Positions 24,040 through 28,681 of a stretch of 64,000 nt of DNA are shown one piece after another. The DNA is from Frigoribacterium sp. VKM Ac-2836. Lineage in GTDB: Bacteria; Actinomycetota; Actinomycetes; Actinomycetales; Microbacteriaceae. Where the stretch lies: positions 744,001-808,000 of the forward strand of contig NZ_JABRPK010000002.1 in NCBI RefSeq assembly GCF_013248995.1. Reading direction: 5' to 3'. Numbering within the stretch: position 1 is the first letter of the stretch; every line of letters begins with the position of its first letter. The translations under genes were made by a program, and so were the position numbers. A model generated the notes under the pieces. It had not been told where the DNA came from. It ran no database searches and saw nothing but the letters and a program-made list of their open reading frames with translations.

Positions 24040-24555
24040 TCACGCGGCGTCCGGTGCGGTGTCGCCGACCAGCGTGCGCCCGAGCGACACCGTGCCGGCG
24101 TCGTCGGCGTAGTGGCCGTACGCGGCGATCGGCCGGTACCCCGCCGATTCGTAGAGGCGGATCGCGGTGTCGTGGGCCACGTTGGTCTCGATCACCATCG
24201 CGGTGACGCCGGCGGCCGCGGCCGACCGTTCGAGCCAGTGCAACACGAGCCGGGACAGCCCTCGCCCGCGCCGGTCGGGACGGACGTACATGCGCTTCAG
24301 CTCGGCCCGACCGTCGGGCAGCAGGCGCCAGGCTCCCAGGGCCACGGGCTCGCCGGTCGCGTAGGCCACGGCGAACGTGCCTCTCGGCAGCTCGAACTCG
24401 GAGCGGTCGATGGGGCTGTCGTCGCGCCCGCCGTAGATCTCGACGTACAGCTCTTGCAGCCCCTCGACGAGCAGCTGCACGTCGGGATGGTCGTAGGGGC
24501 GGGGTTCGATGCTCGTCGCGGGCGCCGGAGTGGTCACCGGACCATCTTCGCCCAT
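24040..24555 (-). CDS. GNAT-family N-acetyltransferase
   Basis: 171 residues from ATG 24555 (GTG 24537 is an alternative; neither has a good ribosome-binding site). The GNAT core is clear: RAELKRMYVRPDRRGRGLSR (motif A, acetyl-CoA pyrophosphate loop RRGRGLS), VLHWLERSAAAAGVTAMVIE, and NVAHDTAIRLYESAGYRPIA (motif B). The N-terminal acceptor region has VQLLVEGLQELYVEIYGG. Acceptor unknown. Faces the ABC operon's terminator. Confidence 0.85.
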   Translation of the reverse strand: MGEDGPVTTPAPATSIEPRPYDHPDVQLLVEGLQELYVEIYGGRDDSPIDRSEFELPRGTFAVAYATGEPVALGAWRLLPDGRAELKRMYVRPDRRGRGLSRLVLHWLERSAAAAGVTAMVIETNVAHDTAIRLYESAGYRPIAAYGHYADDAGTVSLGRTLVGDTAPDAA

Positions 24556-24596
24556 CGTCGGAGGTCGGGCTCGGTCTGGTGGGGGCGGCCCGGTGC

Positions 24597-24745
24597 GGGG
24601 CGAGGCGGCGTATCTCGAGTCGTCCACCGAGCGGAACCGGGCGCTCTACCGGCGGCTGGGGTTCGTCGAGCTGGCGGAGATCCGCGGGCTGCCGGGCGGC
24701 ACGCCCGCCGCGATGTGGCGCCCGGCCCGGACCGTGTCCGGCTGA
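24597..24745 (+). pseudogene. C-terminal remnant of a second GNAT acetyltransferase
   Basis: The frame reads AAYLESSTERNRALYRRLGF, VELAEIRGLPGGTPAAMWRP and ends ARTVSG. AYLE-S-x-x-N-x-x-LYRRLGF is the hallmark last part of GNAT domains that begin with a longer acyl-CoA fold; nothing of that fold is found upstream, where sequence instead belongs to the opposite-strand GNAT gene. A deletion left only ~50 codons. Confidence 0.7.
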
Positions 24746-24814
24746 GGCCCGACAGTCTCGGGTCGCCCTGCCGAGGCGCCCGTCGACGTGGGGCCCGGAG
24801 CCACGTCCGGTTCG

Positions 24815-25888
24815 TCACCTGTCTCTCACGTAGCGGAGCAGGGACGCCTCTCGGATGGATGCGACGCCGAGGACGAGACCGATGATCACACCCACCACGC
24901 CGAGGGCGACGGTCCGGGCCGCGTCGAGATCGATGGGAACCGCGTCGCCCGGTCGGAGGCCTGCCGTGACCGTCAGCACCAGGGCGGCCGTCCAGAGCGT
25001 CGCCGCCGTCGTCCAGACGGCCGCCTGGACGAGCTGGGAGCCGGCCTGGGCGAGGACCGAGACCCCGATGTGCCGGTCGGACGCGAGCGAGCTCCGTCGC
25101 CGCCAGGTCGAGGCCGCCCCCAACGCGAGGCCGAGTCCGCTCGCCACCGCGGGGCCCCATCCGCCCAGAGCGACGGGCCCGGGGCGGAAGGTCGACCCGA
25201 GCGTGCTGTTCAGCTGCCCAAGGGTGGGGTGTGCCGAGGTCTCGGCACCGGAGTCGGGCAGGAGCGTCCGCCCGAGCGCGGCCACGGCCTCGTCGTCAGC
25301 GGGCCACGACGTCGCCCAGCAGGCGTCGAACGGCCCGTCGTCGACCTGGGTCACGGAGAGCGCGCTGTAGGCGAGCGAGGGATCACGCCCGTCGTCGGGG
25401 TACCGGAACACCCCCTGCACGGGCACGGTCCCGCCCGGTGTCGCGAGCAGGCCGGGACCGGTGAGGCCCACGGCCCGCGCGGCCTCGTCGCTGACGACCG
25501 GGCCGAGCCCGTCGGCCGTGCCGTCGAGAGAGAGCAGTGCGGCGAAGCCAGGCGTCGTGACGTGGGTCGGGACGCCGGCTCTCGGCAGCGCGGCGGCCAC
25601 CAGGTCGGTCGGCGAGGACCGGATGGCGCCGGCGGCCCGGACGGTGGGCAGGGCGACGAGGGAGTCGCAGGCGTGACCGTCGATGCGGCCCTCGGCGGAT
25701 TCGACCAGGGTGGCTGCTCCGCTGGACGTCCACCGGTCGGCCTCGTCCACCGCGGAGCGAAGGCTCACCGCCTGGGAGGCGGCGACGCCGCCGACCGCGA
25801 GGACGAACAGTGCGACCCAGAGCAGTGTCATCGTGGTGCCCGAGACGACGTCGCGAACGGCCTCGCGAGCGATCTCACGGGCCTTCAC
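24815..25888 (-). CDS. FtsX/MacB-like ABC transporter permease
   Basis: 357 residues from GTG 25888 within GTGA, overlapping the ATPase stop by four bases. One N-terminal helix (VSGTTMTLLWVALFVLAVGG), a large ~200-residue outside domain, then three C-terminal helices (VALGGWGPAVASGLGLALGA, LVQAAVWTTAATLWTAALVL, TVALGVVGVIIGLVLGVASI). That 1+3 layout is the MacB/FtsX mechanotransmission type, which works on periplasmic or envelope substrates rather than pumping through the membrane. Last gene of the five-gene overlapping operon. Likely role: release or immunity toward the operon's secreted peptide (inference). Confidence 0.82.
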   Translation of the reverse strand: MKAREIAREAVRDVVSGTTMTLLWVALFVLAVGGVAASQAVSLRSAVDEADRWTSSGAATLVESAEGRIDGHACDSLVALPTVRAAGAIRSSPTDLVAAALPRAGVPTHVTTPGFAALLSLDGTADGLGPVVSDEAARAVGLTGPGLLATPGGTVPVQGVFRYPDDGRDPSLAYSALSVTQVDDGPFDACWATSWPADDEAVAALGRTLLPDSGAETSAHPTLGQLNSTLGSTFRPGPVALGGWGPAVASGLGLALGAASTWRRRSSLASDRHIGVSVLAQAGSQLVQAAVWTTAATLWTAALVLTVTAGLRPGDAVPIDLDAARTVALGVVGVIIGLVLGVASIREASLLRYVRDR

Positions 25889-26481
25889 CGTGTCGCTCCG
25901 AGGTCGAGCACGTCGTCACAGGCGTCCCGTGTCGCGGCGTCGTGCGTGGCGACGAGCACCGCGGTGCCGTGATCGGCGAGCGAACCGAGGACGCGGTTGA
26001 CCTCGGCGGCCGTCCGACGGTCCAACTGCGCGGTGGGTTCGTCGACCAGCAGGACGTCGGGCCCGGCGGCGATCCCCCGAGCGAGCATCAAGCGTTGCGC
26101 TTCGCCGCCGGACAACTCGGAGAACCGGGCCCCACCGCGAGGGGACAGCTCGAACCGTGCCAGCAAGGCCTCCGCCCGGCGATCGGCGTCGCGTCGGGAC
26201 GCTCCGGTCGCCAGGAACGCCAAGGAGACGTGGTCGAGGGCGCTTCGGCGGGGGACGCCGTGCGGGTTCTGGAACACCCAGCCGACCCGGGTGCCCTCGG
26301 GGCGTGTGACCTGGCCGAAGCGTGGTGTCAGCATGCCGGCGACGATCGCCATGAGCGTGGACTTGCCCGACCCGCTCGGCCCCACGACGGCGCAGACCGT
26401 GCCGCCCTCGAGGGTGCGGTCGATACCGGTGAACAGCGCAGGCCCGTCACCGAACGCGTGGCCGACCCCGTTCAGCGTCAC
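25885..26481 (-). CDS. ABC transporter ATP-binding protein (LolD/MacB type)
   Basis: 198 residues from GTG 26481, overlapping the adaptor gene's stop in GTGA; the frame extends upstream, but only this start fits. Walker A GPSGSGKSTL, Q-loop VFQNPHGVP, signature LSGGEAQRLMLARG, Walker B VLLVDEPTAQLD, and the switch His in VATHD. Short length (about 200) matches the LolD/MacB/FtsE group that partners FtsX-like permeases. Overlaps the permease by four bases, so the two are made in a fixed ratio. Confidence 0.92.
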   Translation of the reverse strand: MTLNGVGHAFGDGPALFTGIDRTLEGGTVCAVVGPSGSGKSTLMAIVAGMLTPRFGQVTRPEGTRVGWVFQNPHGVPRRSALDHVSLAFLATGASRRDADRRAEALLARFELSPRGGARFSELSGGEAQRLMLARGIAAGPDVLLVDEPTAQLDRRTAAEVNRVLGSLADHGTAVLVATHDAATRDACDDVLDLGATR

Positions 26482-27533
26482 CGGCACGAGATGCCACCGT
26501 CGGGGTGAGGCGTGACCGACGACACCGAGACGCCGTCGGGCGGGACGACGAAGGATTGCCCCAACTGCGACCCGACCACCTCGACGAGGACGGGCGACAG
26601 GGCGGTGCCGGAGGTGTCGACGGGCTGTAGGCACGCCGTCCCGTCACGCAGGCCGACGAGGGCGCCGGGTGGCACGACCGAGACCCGGACGGGTTCGGCG
26701 AGGGACCAGCGCGCCGAGATGGTCGGGGTCTCTTGTCCCCTCGATGCGGCGTATTCGCGCGTGGCGGCGAGACGCGAAAGGTCCGCAGGATCGGTGACCA
26801 TCCCCTCGGGCGTGATGCCGACCGTCACGTCGGCCACGCTCACCACGCGATCGCCGGGAGAGGCGTCGAGGGGCGGCTCGTCGAGTCGGATGGATTGCAA
26901 CTCGACGGGGAGGCGGACGAGCTCGTCGCCGCTGTCGACCCGCGACCCCACCACGCCCGGGCAGCCCTCTGTCTGGACCCTGGGGGCCGGAATCCATGCG
27001 ACGGCGTCGACCGGGACCGGATCGGTGGCCGCCATCGGCACGCCTCGGGCGGTCAAGTACGCGCGGACGGCCCGTTGCGTGCCGGCGCCGAAAATGCCGT
27101 CCACGCTGATGGACGCGCCCGACCGGGTCAACTCACTCTGCAACCCACGGACGTCGTCGCCCCGGTCACCGGCCTCGAGCGCACGCCAGAGGGGCACCGC
27201 GGTCGCGAGGGCGACCACGGGGGCGCCGTCGACGGTGGCGACGACGTCACCGCTCGAGATCTCACCCCCCGCCGAGCAGGACAGCCCGGTGAGGACGCCC
27301 GGTCGGGGCGAGACGATCATGCGTGCCGACCCGGTCCGCGGTACGAGCTGGACTTGACGTTCGTCGACGTCGTCGCGTGACTCGACCGGAACCGCCGCGG
27401 TGACGGCGGGTGAGCTCAGGGCGGTCGGTCGGTCGTGCGGGAGGAGCAGCACGGTCGCCCCGGCACCGATCGCGAGCGCCGTCGCGGCCACGAGTCCGAC
27501 CAGCGACGCGGTCGGTCGCCGGATCGGCGTCAT
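26478..27533 (-). CDS. Membrane-anchored adaptor with peptidoglycan-binding domain
   Basis: 351 residues from ATG 27533 in ATGA. One N-terminal helix (ASLVGLVAATALAIGAGATV), a strand-rich region (MIVSPRPGVLTGLSCSAGGE, SSGDVVATVDGAPVV) resembling a lipoyl/HlyD hairpin, then a PG_binding_1 domain (GDDVRGLQSELTRSGASISV, DGIFGAGTQRAVRAYLTARG), then a second strand-rich part. This is the actinobacterial HlyD-like adaptor architecture, able to link an ABC permease to the wall. Overlaps its neighbours by four bases on both sides, tying it to the lipoprotein and ATPase genes. Confidence 0.82.
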   Translation of the reverse strand: MTPIRRPTASLVGLVAATALAIGAGATVLLLPHDRPTALSSPAVTAAVPVESRDDVDERQVQLVPRTGSARMIVSPRPGVLTGLSCSAGGEISSGDVVATVDGAPVVALATAVPLWRALEAGDRGDDVRGLQSELTRSGASISVDGIFGAGTQRAVRAYLTARGVPMAATDPVPVDAVAWIPAPRVQTEGCPGVVGSRVDSGDELVRLPVELQSIRLDEPPLDASPGDRVVSVADVTVGITPEGMVTDPADLSRLAATREYAASRGQETPTISARWSLAEPVRVSVVPPGALVGLRDGTACLQPVDTSGTALSPVLVEVVGSQLGQSFVVPPDGVSVSSVTPHPDGGISCR

Positions 27534-28138
27534 CGCTCGTACCAGAGGCCGAGAGGGTCCCTGTCGCAGGCCTGGGCCGCTTCGGACATTGGGTCGAACG
27601 GGAAGTCGCCTGTCTCGTTGTCGGCCTCCCAGTCTTTCCGGCCGTAGCTCGGCTCGACCACCCCGGCCGTGACGAGGCATTCGACCTCGATCGTCGCCTC
27701 GTCGAGCCGAGCGGGGTTTCGTCGCGTCTGCTCGAACAGGAAGGTCACCTGTGCGTCGAATCTCGTTTCGCAGGCTTCGAGTGCGGCGTTGGACTGTTCG
27801 AAGGGCATGCCGGGACTCCCGCCGTCTCGGCCGCCGACGTCGAAACCGCCCTCGCGACGGTAAGTGATCGAGAGACCGGAATCGGCGAGACAGCGGCGGA
27901 CCCCGTCGTGGGCCTGCTCGAGTTCGGTCGGCGTGACGACCCCGTCGGCCAGGATCTCTCGTTCGCTGTCGCTCTCGCTTTTCTCGAGCGCCATGGCGAA
28001 TTCGTCTGCCCACGGGCCGGCGTGCTCCTGTGCCTCGGCGTCGAGCCGTGCGGAGTCGGTCGGCTGGGGGCCGGCACACCCGACCACGGTGCCGAGCACG
28101 GCGACGGCCACAGCCGTCGCCACAGCCGTCGATCTCAC
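27530..28138 (-). CDS. Hypothetical lipoprotein of the peptide operon
   Basis: 202 residues from GTG 28138 in GTGA. Lipoprotein signal with Cys21 (AVLGTVVGC|AGPQ), then a mostly helical, acidic domain with three further cysteines (VRRCLADSGLS, ALEACETRFD, VECLVTAGVV) and CDRDPLGLWYER at the end. I recognise no family. Four-base overlaps join it to the upstream secreted peptide gene and the downstream adaptor, so the lipoprotein probably handles the peptide outside the membrane, as an immunity or chaperone-like factor (inference). Confidence 0.7.
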   Translation of the reverse strand: MRSTAVATAVAVAVLGTVVGCAGPQPTDSARLDAEAQEHAGPWADEFAMALEKSESDSEREILADGVVTPTELEQAHDGVRRCLADSGLSITYRREGGFDVGGRDGGSPGMPFEQSNAALEACETRFDAQVTFLFEQTRRNPARLDEATIEVECLVTAGVVEPSYGRKDWEADNETGDFPFDPMSEAAQACDRDPLGLWYER

Positions 28139-28413
28139 CGCGCCGTCATCCCGTAGGACACCACGTTCACCCAGCAGGCCGCCTGTTTCGACCACTTGCC
28201 ACGGGTCACCCACGGGCCGTACCGGGTGTTCGACTGACGAATCGCGTTCCAGTGTCGTGCCCTGGTGCACGAATTGTTCTTGCCCATCGACCGGGTGACG
28301 CTGCCGTAGCAGGCGGCCTGTGCCTCGGGTGCCGTCGCGACGTCCGCCGCGATCGTGCCCCCGGCCAGGACGATGGTGACCGCGGCCGCGATCGCGAATC
28401 TCTTGATGAGCAC
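28135..28413 (-). CDS. Small secreted three-cysteine peptide, first gene of the operon
   Basis: 92 residues from GTG 28413 behind GAGGGAGGAAG. A Sec signal (LIKRFAIAAAVTIVLAGGTI, cleavage near EAQA33) leaves ~59 residues, basic and rich in Trp, Ser and Asn, with Cys35, Cys49 and Cys80 (ACYGSVTRSMGKNNSC, …RARHWNAIRQSNTRYGPWVT…, AACWVNVVSYG). Size, export, charge and linkage to an ABC/adaptor set resemble class II or lactococcin-972-like bacteriocins, but I see no match to a named family. The odd cysteine number permits an intermolecular disulfide. Ends in a 4-base overlap with the lipoprotein gene. Confidence 0.75.
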   Translation of the reverse strand: MLIKRFAIAAAVTIVLAGGTIAADVATAPEAQAACYGSVTRSMGKNNSCTRARHWNAIRQSNTRYGPWVTRGKWSKQAACWVNVVSYGMTAR

Positions 28414-28426
28414 GTGCTTCCTCCCT

Positions 28427-28481
28427 CTGACGAAACCGTTCCGTCAGGCGTGAAGCTAACGTTAAAAAGATGACCTATCAA
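28427..28481 (-). promoter_or_regulatory. Candidate promoter and operators of the peptide operon
   Basis: On the minus strand TTGATA (28481-28476), a 16-base spacer and TTAGCT (28459-28454); the -10 is identical to that of the sugar importer. TAACGTTA (28457-28464) overlaps the -10, and CTGACG/CGTCAG (28427-28432 and 28442-28447) forms an inverted repeat between promoter and ribosome-binding site. Either may bind a regulator not encoded here. This is the most AT-rich spot in the neighbourhood. Confidence 0.5.
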
Positions 28482-28681
28482 GGGTGAAATGTCGATCACC
28501 GAGGCTGCCCACCGATGGCCGGGGCAGGCCGCGCCTCCTGCGTTCGCGGCCTGCGCCTCCGGGCTTCGGTGGGGTCGCCCAGACGCGCCATGTATCTTCA
28601 TGTCGAGAGATCTCTGCGCGGTAGCGTAGGGAGAGCACCACCGAGCACACGCATGCCCGACAACGAGGGAGCACCTGCCGC

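What the first reader, a model, noticed from the sequence alone, without database searches (positions are those of the whole stretch)
24815..28481. Five-gene, four-overlap operon: secreted cysteine peptide, lipoprotein, wall-binding adaptor and MacB-like ABC pair
Every junction of the operon is a 4-base ATGA/GTGA overlap (28138, 27533, 26481, 25888), so the products are made in fixed ratio. The first gene is a 92-residue precursor with a Sec signal and a basic, Trp-rich ~59-residue mature peptide with three cysteines. It is followed by a cysteine-containing lipoprotein of no known family, a membrane-anchored protein with a peptidoglycan-binding domain, and a LolD/FtsX-like ABC pair. Known lactococcin-972-type and other bacteriocin loci couple a secreted peptide to ABC immunity or export, but neither the peptide nor the lipoprotein matches a family I know. 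It may be an undescribed secreted peptide system: antimicrobial, signalling or wall-modifying.
Basis: partly seen in the sequence, partly recalled or inferred. Interest (0 to 1): 0.85.

Follow-up and report, generated by a model that had tools for sequence, protein, structure and literature searches.

The report
Modular bacteriocin operon with immunity lipoprotein
Five overlapping genes most likely make and resist a small secreted bacterial toxin of a so far unnamed family, and in one pair of relatives the toxin and its partner lipoprotein have changed together while the transporter beside them stayed much the same.

Summary
In detail: five genes (24815-28413, minus strand) joined by four 4-base overlaps encode a 92-residue Sec precursor (59-residue mature peptide, three Cys), a lipoprotein (LIP), a peptidoglycan-binding adaptor and an ABC pair. 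They fill a 3.8-kb island missing from the matching site of one congener. The LIP-adaptor-ABC cassette recurs in relatives. In 21 of 50 loci examined it follows a lactococcin-972-type peptide; in 11, window included, a 3-Cys peptide ("C3") without Pfam match. A search with the C3 profile alone added four genomes; all four have LIP directly behind C3. Lactococcin-972 peptides are less strict: of 14 found independently, 8 sit in LIP cassettes and 6 do not, five of these beside the classical membrane protein and ABC genes. At one shared locus of two congeneric genomes, mature peptide (43% identity) and LIP (49%) have diverged far more than signal peptide (91%), adaptor (81%), ATPase (89%) and permease (78%). 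At another, peptide plus LIP are present in one genome and missing in another beside the same ABC tail. Best reading: an unmodified bacteriocin, LIP its cognate immunity protein, the ABC tail clearing it. Lactococcin-972 membership fails. Activity is unproven. New variant of a known kind.

The parts
28135..28413 (-). C3 peptide gene: 92-aa precursor; signal residues 1-33 (28315-28413), mature 59 aa (28138-28314) with three Cys
   Evidence: homologues directly upstream of the lipoprotein in 10 other genomes, 6 of them found through LIP and 4 through the peptide alone; AF2 model all-beta, pLDDT 78.6, pTM 0.58
27530..28138 (-). LIP: lipoprotein (lipobox VVG|C) with four further invariant Cys; inferred cognate immunity protein
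   Evidence: 41-row alignment: invariant C1, C63, C103, N121, P122, C134, C171, P175; no credible Pfam/NCBIfam family; AF2 pLDDT 91.5, no PDB match at E<=0.001
26478..27533 (-). PGB: N-terminally anchored MacA-like adaptor with a peptidoglycan-binding domain between two halves that read like a barrel-sandwich (lipoyl-like) domain
   Evidence: PG_binding_1 in 20 of 27 homologues, HlyD_D23 weakly in 2 of 27; anchor and barrel-sandwich halves read by eye (inference)
25885..26481 (-). ABC ATPase of the LolD/YbbA/MacB/FtsE kind
   Evidence: PF00005 89.6 bits; best single-domain solved relatives YbbA and LolD
24815..25888 (-). ABC permease, FtsX-like
   Evidence: 7 of 26 homologues match PF02687 FtsX, best 4e-6; window member alone 0 matches
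24769..28571 (.). inserted island holding the five genes, between icd and the remnant of an acetyltransferase gene
   Evidence: comparison with G013/L120, which lacks it
24760..24768 (.). left copy of 9-bp direct repeat GGGTCGCCC at the island edge
28572..28580 (.). right copy of the 9-bp direct repeat; 28572 is the first base of the renewed match to the empty site
28427..28447 (-). hairpin CTGACGGAA-CGG-TTTCGTCAG just upstream of the ribosome-binding site of the peptide gene; role unknown
   Evidence: z -0.36 for the window leader, so not remarkable by energy

Best explanation
The operon is a chromosomal bacteriocin locus of modular build. Head: a small Sec-secreted, unmodified, all-beta peptide (C3) is released by signal peptidase, and a membrane-anchored lipoprotein (LIP) made from the next gene binds that particular peptide at the producer's own surface and neutralises it. 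Tail: a MacAB-like machine (a peptidoglycan-binding adaptor, an ATPase and an FtsX-like permease) of broader specificity clears the peptide or peptide-target complexes from the membrane. [quoted passage not shown] Shown here: the gene order, its recurrence, the C3-LIP linkage, the strong divergence of mature peptide and LIP at one fixed locus, their joint presence or absence at another, and the island. Inferred: toxicity, immunity by LIP, clearance by the ABC tail, and the target.
For: (1) C3 and LIP are linked: a scan with the mature C3 profile alone in 398 family genomes gave 11 genomes with a hit at E<=1.8e-6; the four in no earlier hit list (L165-L168) all have C3 directly upstream of a LIP, three of four with the full tail. 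The other seven had been found through LIP. (2) The same cassette carries lactococcin-972 peptides: 17 of 18 first candidates pass Pfam PF09683, further ones come from an in-house HMM, 21 of 50 loci in all; and of 14 PF09683 matches found without LIP in 100 family genomes, 8 lie in such cassettes. (3) Five of the other six stand before a 656-737-aa protein and an ATPase; four of the five proteins match bact_immun_7tm TIGR01654, and the three ATPases scanned rank TIGR03608 (lactococcin-972 ABC) first, though none reaches the cut-off. The LIP cassette thus looks like an alternative partner module for the same peptides. (4) L064 and L165 are one locus in two genomes of one genus code, flanks 87-90% identical in DNA, yet mature peptide 43% (dN 0.62) and LIP 49% (dN 0.52) against signal 91%, adaptor 81% (0.13), ATPase 89% (0.06), permease 78% (0.14). 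(5) L086 and L094 share a locus; similarity breaks only across peptide+LIP (about 1.03 kb in L086, 0.1 kb in L094) and resumes at the adaptor; L094 has neither peptide nor LIP. (6) Heads without tail in the fetched stretch: L087, L095 (lactococcin type + LIP) and L167 (C3 + LIP). (7) Streptococcin B, lactococcin-972-like, is reported active (PMC11796350, passages).
Against: No activity data exist for any C3 peptide that I know of or found. C3 fails PF09683; homology to lactococcin 972 is only a hint (hhalign E 0.021, 2 of 200 column shuffles as high). The C3 model has no PDB match at E<=0.001. Lactococcin-972 peptides do occur without LIP: 6 of 14, and L188 shows neither partner module. Faster divergence of peptide and LIP is not general: among five pairs with permease identity 50-57% LIP is the least conserved of the four proteins in one only; peptides compared there were at 58% (L077/L082, L072/L074), above the permease; in L085/L088 the peptide is 95% and LIP 83% identical; in L069/L070 all are high. 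In L064/L165 dS too jumps at the mature part (0.12 to 0.53) and LIP has dS 1.3, so exchange by recombination, or of one of the two LIP copies of L064, fits as well as coevolution. The cargo label needs only 2 changes on the LIP, permease and ATPase trees and 3 on the adaptor tree: cassettes mostly travel whole. LIP also diverges fast where no peptide was recognised (L083/L086). G048 and G161, with tail-less heads, carry a tail elsewhere.
Confidence: 0.7

Rival explanations
1. Same bacteriocin, different division of labour: the ABC tail is the real immunity (as inferred for lcn972 orf2-orf3), and LIP is an export or folding helper or a passive scavenger.
For: [quoted passage not shown] 36 of 41 peptide loci of the survey keep the tail; the classical lactococcin-972 loci found here have an ABC module and no LIP.
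Against: Peptide+LIP occurs without the tail in the fetched stretch of L087, L095, L167, L085 and L088; the tail stays similar while peptide and LIP diverge or vanish. B and C gene functions are stated as unverified in any lactococcin-972 locus (PMC11796350, passages).
Confidence: 0.17
2. The peptide is a signal or kin-recognition pheromone: LIP is its receptor and the ABC tail relays or imports it.
For: Cognate ligand-receptor pairs also co-diversify; lipoprotein plus ABC can serve peptide sensing (both recalled); nothing in the operon proves killing.
Against: No further gene, so no regulator, was recognised in the island 24769-28571; the same cassette carries Pfam lactococcin-972 bacteriocins; the ATPase and permease are of the LolD/MacB/FtsX kind.
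Confidence: 0.08
3. The peptide acts on the producer's own wall (remodelling or stress factor) rather than on rivals.
For: The adaptor binds peptidoglycan by domain match; lactococcin-972-like bacteriocins act on lipid II and septum formation (PMC11796350, passages).
Against: Patchy distribution: peptide in 1 of 16 genomes of the genus, diverged or lost at fixed loci, part of an island here; dN/dS of the mature part about 1.2 in L064/L165, untested for significance.
Confidence: 0.05

Closest known systems
Lactococcin 972 family bacteriocin loci (lcn972-orf2-orf3 of L. lactis pBL1; streptococcin B scbABC)
   Same: Small Sec-secreted, unmodified peptide followed by ABC-type genes thought to confer immunity; the window's cassette type carries Pfam Lactococcin_972 peptides in many relatives; C3 is all-beta by prediction, as lactococcin 972 is described (PMC11796350, passages).
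   Different: The window peptide fails PF09683 and has three Cys; there are an added lipoprotein and a peptidoglycan-binding adaptor; the classical large bact_immun_7tm membrane protein is missing; the ATPase scores 108 bits for TIGR03608 (cut-off 254.85), fifth in the list, against 206-212 bits and first rank for three ATPases of classical loci in this family of bacteria.
Curtobacterium sp. APC 4022 lactococcin-972-like Pep1 cluster (PMC10456417)
   Same: As described: core peptide, two ABC genes and two hypothetical genes, the same count and kinds as in the cassette studied here.
   Different: The core peptide is called lactococcin-972-like there; the hypothetical genes are not analysed in the passages read, so identity with LIP and adaptor is an inference.
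MacAB/LolCDE-type ABC systems
   Same: Adaptor plus LolD/YbbA-like ATPase and FtsX-like permease.
   Different: ATPase and permease on separate chains; the adaptor carries a peptidoglycan-binding domain; no outer membrane partner (the last from general knowledge of these Gram-positive bacteria).
Lantibiotic immunity LanI lipoprotein + LanFEG ABC transporter
   Same: Works alike: a peptide-specific lipoprotein plus an ABC transporter protects the producer (recalled; nisI and nisFEG appear in a reference title in PMC4055356).
   Different: No lanthionine enzyme was recognised in the island; LIP matches no LanI or other immunity family and its predicted fold has no PDB match at E<=0.001.

Membership tests
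Lactococcin 972 family (peptide) | Pfam PF09683 match of the structural peptide | tested here: not met
   window peptide: no credible Pfam match; none of 10 non-lactococcin peptides matches PF09683 at E<=1, 17 of 18 lactococcin-like ones do; the PF09683 search of the window's own genome finds another locus (C3:370435), not this one
Lactococcin 972 family (peptide) | sequence-profile relationship to the family | tested here: inconclusive
   hhalign E 0.021, probability 2.3%; 2 of 200 column-shuffled controls score as high; alignment limited to 16 columns around a G-x-W-[AS] motif
Lactococcin 972 family (peptide) | beta-sandwich fold | tested here: inconclusive
   AF2 gives five strands, pLDDT 78.6, pTM 0.58; no PDB match at E<=0.001 and no lactococcin-972 entry among the 50 of 1281 rows shown
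Lactococcin 972 locus, classical type | ABC ATPase of subfamily TIGR03608 | tested here: not met
   108.4 bits, cut-off 254.85; control ATPases of classical loci also miss the cut-off but score 206-212 bits and rank it first
Lactococcin 972 locus, classical type | large bacteriocin-associated membrane protein (TIGR01654) | tested here: not met
   no match listed for the window's non-ATPase proteins; 4 of 5 controls from classical loci match below cut-off
Lactococcin 972 locus, classical type | unmodified Sec-exported peptide encoded first in an operon with ABC genes | tested here: met
   no modification enzyme recognised in the island; chemistry of the real product not tested
Lactococcin 972 family | acts by binding lipid II | not testable with these tools
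   needs purified peptide
C3 peptide family (defined here) | Sec signal, C-x(12-17)-C-x(28-33)-C mature peptide, directly upstream of LIP | tested here: met
   exactly three Cys in 10 of 10 members readable in one frame, including L167, whose profile match runs over a stop codon; 11 of 11 confident hits next to LIP, 4 of them independent of LIP; the eleventh member (L066) is split over two frames
MacA-type adaptor | barrel-sandwich/HlyD domains plus membrane anchor | tested here: inconclusive
   HlyD_D23 in 2 of 27 homologues at best E 0.012; PG_binding_1 in 20 of 27
FtsX/MacB permease | PF02687 match | tested here: inconclusive
   7 of 26 homologues, best 4e-6; window member itself none
LanI-type immunity lipoprotein | match to a LanI family model | tested here: not met
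   41 LIP members against NCBIfam at E<=0.1: no immunity family among the four listed

The most novel reading that the evidence does not exclude
C3 is a new class of unmodified, cysteine-containing beta bacteriocins; the odd, invariant number of cysteines (three) suggests disulfide-linked homodimers. LIP is a new immunity-protein fold whose specificity is matched to each mature peptide. The loci work as plug-in weapons: a toxin+immunity head that is replaced or diversified at fixed chromosomal sites in front of a constant MacAB-like tail that tolerates several peptide families (lactococcin 972, C3, a 'YAQHG' type and others), a second solution beside the classical lactococcin-972 immunity module.
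Probability: 0.4. Interest if true: 0.78.

Novelty: new variant of a known kind. Interest (0 to 1): 0.64.

Why it matters
The functions of the partner genes are stated to be unverified in any lactococcin-972 locus (PMC11796350, passages). The survey names a concrete, testable candidate immunity factor, a lipoprotein family with a confidently predicted fold that found no PDB match, and shows in one locus that it has diverged with the mature peptide while the transporter has not. It also gives an unnamed peptide family and a search rule (small secreted peptide directly before LIP) that should find bacteriocin candidates which peptide profiles alone miss, such as C3 and the YAQHG type.

Tried and rejected
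Chance or mis-called ORFs: rejected, because the frames recur in the same order in other genera and the profile search found the peptide at the same place in four more genomes. Anti-phage defence: PADLOC matches only the generic ATPase. Plasmid carriage: no tblastn match of LIP (E<=1e-3), peptide (E<=1) or adaptor (E<=1e-10) in 72,556 plasmid records. Class-wide search with the 3-row peptide alignment: 13 of 394 genomes passed E<=0.01; all but the window's own are weak (best 5e-4) and were taken as noise without further check; likewise the G019 hit (E 8e-4, in a 445-aa frame). Sigma-70 promoter scan: none; the one terminator-like site lies on the other strand inside the peptide gene. Rfam: none. 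Frequent swapping of cargo between whole cassettes: not supported by the trees. Leader hairpin: mean z -1.76 for 7 C3 leaders, -1.11 for 17 lactococcin-type, -0.13 for 5 others; left as a remark. Two Foldseek searches gave no usable match. The same control shows a classical alternative module, so I left the odds as they were.

Papers: PMC11796350, PMC12328743, PMC4055356, PMC12823222 and PMC10456417 were seen as passages only; all others as search listings, some cut (40 of 125 and 15 of 333 shown). That nothing listed names this lipoprotein or C3 is no proof of absence from print; subscription journals are mostly not held.

Limits: the first 40 regions were chosen by me from the stronger places (matches in 44 and 69 of 299 genomes); others (for example in G239, G323, G210, G269, G232) were not fetched. 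Of the 50 loci, 46 were chosen through LIP or adaptor (the window among them) and 4 through C3, so the finding that all 41 loci with a peptide have LIP is partly built in. Peptides were recognised by an ad hoc signal-peptide rule, by eye and by HMMs. LIPs of L063 and L100 were read. L080 is counted as a candidate peptide; one search does not say which of 18 fails PF09683, and by its sequence I take it to be L080. Two LIP rows (shortened copy in L070, partial copy in L075) were dropped before the trees; those two plus L080 and L068 before A5. The trees do not hold L165-L173, found later. Gene names icd, acetyltransferase (GNAT), TetR and histidine kinase are read by eye, not from a family search.


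Full report
What is there. The window lies at G000:C3:744001-808000. Pfam recognises the adaptor (PG_binding_1) and the ATPase, not the peptide, the lipoprotein or the window's permease. With homologues, 7 of 26 permeases match FtsX and 20 of 27 adaptors match PG_binding_1.

It is an inserted unit. The peptide is absent from the 15 other genomes of the genus searched. Nine congener regions were fetched. In one, G013, icd (name read by eye) is followed by an acetyltransferase gene, a TetR-like gene and a second acetyltransferase gene; in the others icd has other neighbours or was not found in the stretch. Against G013 the match of the window stops at 28572 and resumes at 24726; between lies the operon, with 46 bases after the last stop and 158 before the first start. 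The window has also lost the TetR-like gene and most of the first acetyltransferase gene. GGGTCGCCC stands at both edges (24760-24768, 28572-28580) and the empty site reads GGGCCGTCC there, so the repeat may be a duplicated or recombined target. I estimate by hand that some shared 9-mer between two such stretches is expected about 0.4 times by chance; the repeat counts only because it sits exactly where the alignment resumes.

The cassette elsewhere. LIP homologues occur in 44 of 299 family genomes at E<=0.01 and adaptor homologues in 69 of 299 at E<=1e-6; a LIP profile found 6 of 394 genomes of the class at E<=1e-5. I fetched 40 regions around stronger hits, then nine more; with the window, 50 loci. 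The order LIP-adaptor-ATPase-permease is the same wherever all four were found. In front of LIP usually stands a small secreted peptide. Of 18 that looked like lactococcin 972, 17 pass Pfam PF09683; an HMM built from them found more in L098, L077 and L089 and L169, 21 loci in all. In the window and its kin it is another peptide, C3: exactly three Cys in 10 of 10 members readable in one frame, C-x(12-17)-C-x(28-33)-C, no Pfam match (on the members known then). Others carry a 'YAQHG' type (the window genome's second locus L063, and L170-L172 of another family code) or singletons (L085/L088, L100, L102, L080). Over 50 loci: 21 lactococcin-type, 11 C3, 4 YAQHG, 5 others, 9 without a recognised peptide. 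All 41 with a peptide have LIP and 36 of the 41 the tail; the two loci without LIP have no recognised peptide. 46 of the 50 were chosen through LIP or adaptor, so this alone proves little.

Tests that did not depend on LIP. The mature C3 profile was run over 398 family genomes. Eleven genomes have a hit at E<=1.8e-6; seven more have only hits of 0.003-0.01, taken as noise. Seven of the eleven were known from LIP. The four others (G790, G771, G764, G719) all have C3 directly upstream of a LIP, three of four with the whole tail; the fourth, L167, has no tail in the stretch and its match runs over a stop codon. With the 3-row profile no credible C3 hit besides the window's own appeared in 394 genomes of the class. 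For lactococcin 972 the link is looser: PF09683 gave 14 matches in 10 of 100 family genomes. Eight lie in LIP cassettes of the survey; six do not, and no LIP was found within the 11-12 kb around any of the six. Five of the six precede a 656-737-aa protein and an ATPase: four of these five proteins match bact_immun_7tm (TIGR01654) and three ATPases scanned rank the lactococcin-972 ABC (TIGR03608) first, all below cut-off. The sixth, L188, shows neither. So lactococcin-972 peptides use two partner modules here, the classical one and the LIP cassette; C3 was seen only with LIP. The window's genome holds one of each kind: a classical lactococcin-972 locus (L191), a YAQHG cassette (L063) and the C3 cassette.

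Two natural experiments. First, L064 (G158) and L165 (G790) carry the same genus code and have the operon at the same place: DNA flanks match at 87-90% on both sides. The signal peptide is 91% identical, adaptor 81%, ATPase 89%, permease 78%, but the mature peptide 43% and LIP 49% (the closer of two LIP copies in L064; the other 39%). dN is 0.62 and 0.52 for mature peptide and LIP against 0.06-0.14 for the tail. dN/dS of the mature peptide is about 1.2 (0.616/0.527), not tested for significance; dS also rises from 0.12 in the signal to 0.53 in the mature part, and is 1.3 in LIP, so exchange by recombination is as possible as fast change in place. Second, L086 and L094 share a locus in another genus. 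Similarity (82% before, 77% after, tail included) breaks only across 1.03 kb of L086 that holds a lactococcin-972 peptide and LIP; L094 has 0.1 kb there and neither gene. L083, at the same place, has a LIP (47% identical to that of L086) and no recognised peptide, but also lacks about 3 kb further upstream, so it is a less clean comparison.

How general the divergence is. In the five pairs with LIP on both sides and permease identity of 65% or more (two share L066, so not all independent), LIP is the least conserved of LIP, adaptor, ATPase and permease. In the five pairs at 50-57% it is so in one only. Peptides are not always fast: 90% in L069/L070, 95% in L085/L088, 58% in L077/L082 and in L072/L074, as conserved as the permease or more where there is one.

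What follows. A secreted peptide and the lipoprotein beside it have diverged together at one locus and are present or absent together at another, while the transporter stays; C3 was always seen with LIP. That is the pattern of a toxin and its specific immunity protein. [quoted passage not shown] The ABC tail resembles MacAB-type machines and is best read as a clearing pump of broad specificity, since it serves several peptide families; the peptide needs no dedicated exporter because it has a Sec signal.

Trees. On trees of 43 LIPs and 32 permeases (quick method) the label lactococcin-type versus C3 needs 2 changes (shuffled means 8.0 and 6.3; 0 of 500 shuffles as low); ATPase 2, adaptor 3 (controls printed for LIP and permease only). 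Eight of nine C3 LIPs form one group (SH-aLRT 89); L090 stands apart. Whole cassettes usually travel with their cargo, and trees alone would not single out LIP.

Structure. C3 is predicted as five beta strands (pLDDT 78.6, pTM 0.58, six rows) without a PDB match at E<=0.001. LIP is predicted with high confidence (pLDDT 91.5, pTM 0.80, 41 rows) as a helical domain with one hairpin, again without a PDB match (best E 0.18) and without a sequence relative in the PDB at E<=1. Whether C3 is a far branch of lactococcin 972 is open: hhalign E 0.021, 2 of 200 column-shuffled controls as high, over 16 columns around a shared G-x-W-[AS] motif.

Prior knowledge. In print, seen as passages: lactococcin 972 with orf2-orf3 as putative immunity ABC (PMC4055356); [quoted passage not shown] a Curtobacterium cluster of a lactococcin-972-like core gene, two ABC genes and two hypothetical genes (PMC10456417); a lactococcin-972-family prediction in Frigoribacterium (PMC12823222). 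Seven literature searches listed no title or abstract start that describes the lipoprotein, C3 or the head/tail pattern.

Verdict. Ordinary in kind (a bacteriocin operon), but with an unnamed peptide family, an unnamed lipoprotein family whose predicted fold found no PDB match, and comparative evidence for the lipoprotein as immunity factor. New variant of a known kind, interest 0.64.

Noticed in passing
L063 (G000:C3:1086000-1096500): The window's own genome has a second cassette: two tandem LIPs, adaptor, ATPase and permease, preceded by a 95-aa secreted peptide of another (YAQHG) type that also stands before LIP in L170-L172 of a different family code.
   Followed up: partly
L191 (G000:C3:365000-376000): The window's own genome also has a classical lactococcin-972 locus without LIP: a PF09683 peptide, a 700-aa protein and an ATPase whose best NCBIfam match is the lactococcin-972 ABC (206 bits, cut-off 254.85).
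   Followed up: partly
window 24509-24745: Remnant of an acetyltransferase gene: its C-terminal end matches the full gene between icd and a TetR-like gene in congener G013; the TetR-like gene and most of this gene are missing in the window.
   Followed up: partly
L066 (G212:C17): Decaying C3 locus: the peptide and the permease are each split over two frames; described only.
   Followed up: no
L070 4158-4589: A second, internally shortened LIP copy (143-aa frame) upstream of the C3 peptide gene, not found in the otherwise similar locus L069.
   Followed up: no
L085 and L088: A two-Cys secreted peptide and LIP followed directly by a large ABC exporter-like gene (about 680 aa; type read by eye) instead of the adaptor and ABC pair; one search lists no adaptor for these two genomes.
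   Followed up: no
window 28427-28447 and leaders of L064-L066, L069, L070, L090: Each of seven C3 genes has a predicted stem-loop shortly before its start, of different sequence; L069 and L070 differ by what look like compensating changes. Mean z -1.76 over the 7 leaders, so weak.
   Followed up: partly
L099: Adaptor-ATPase-permease without LIP or recognised peptide, downstream of what reads like a histidine kinase gene; perhaps a stress-response version of the same tail.
   Followed up: no
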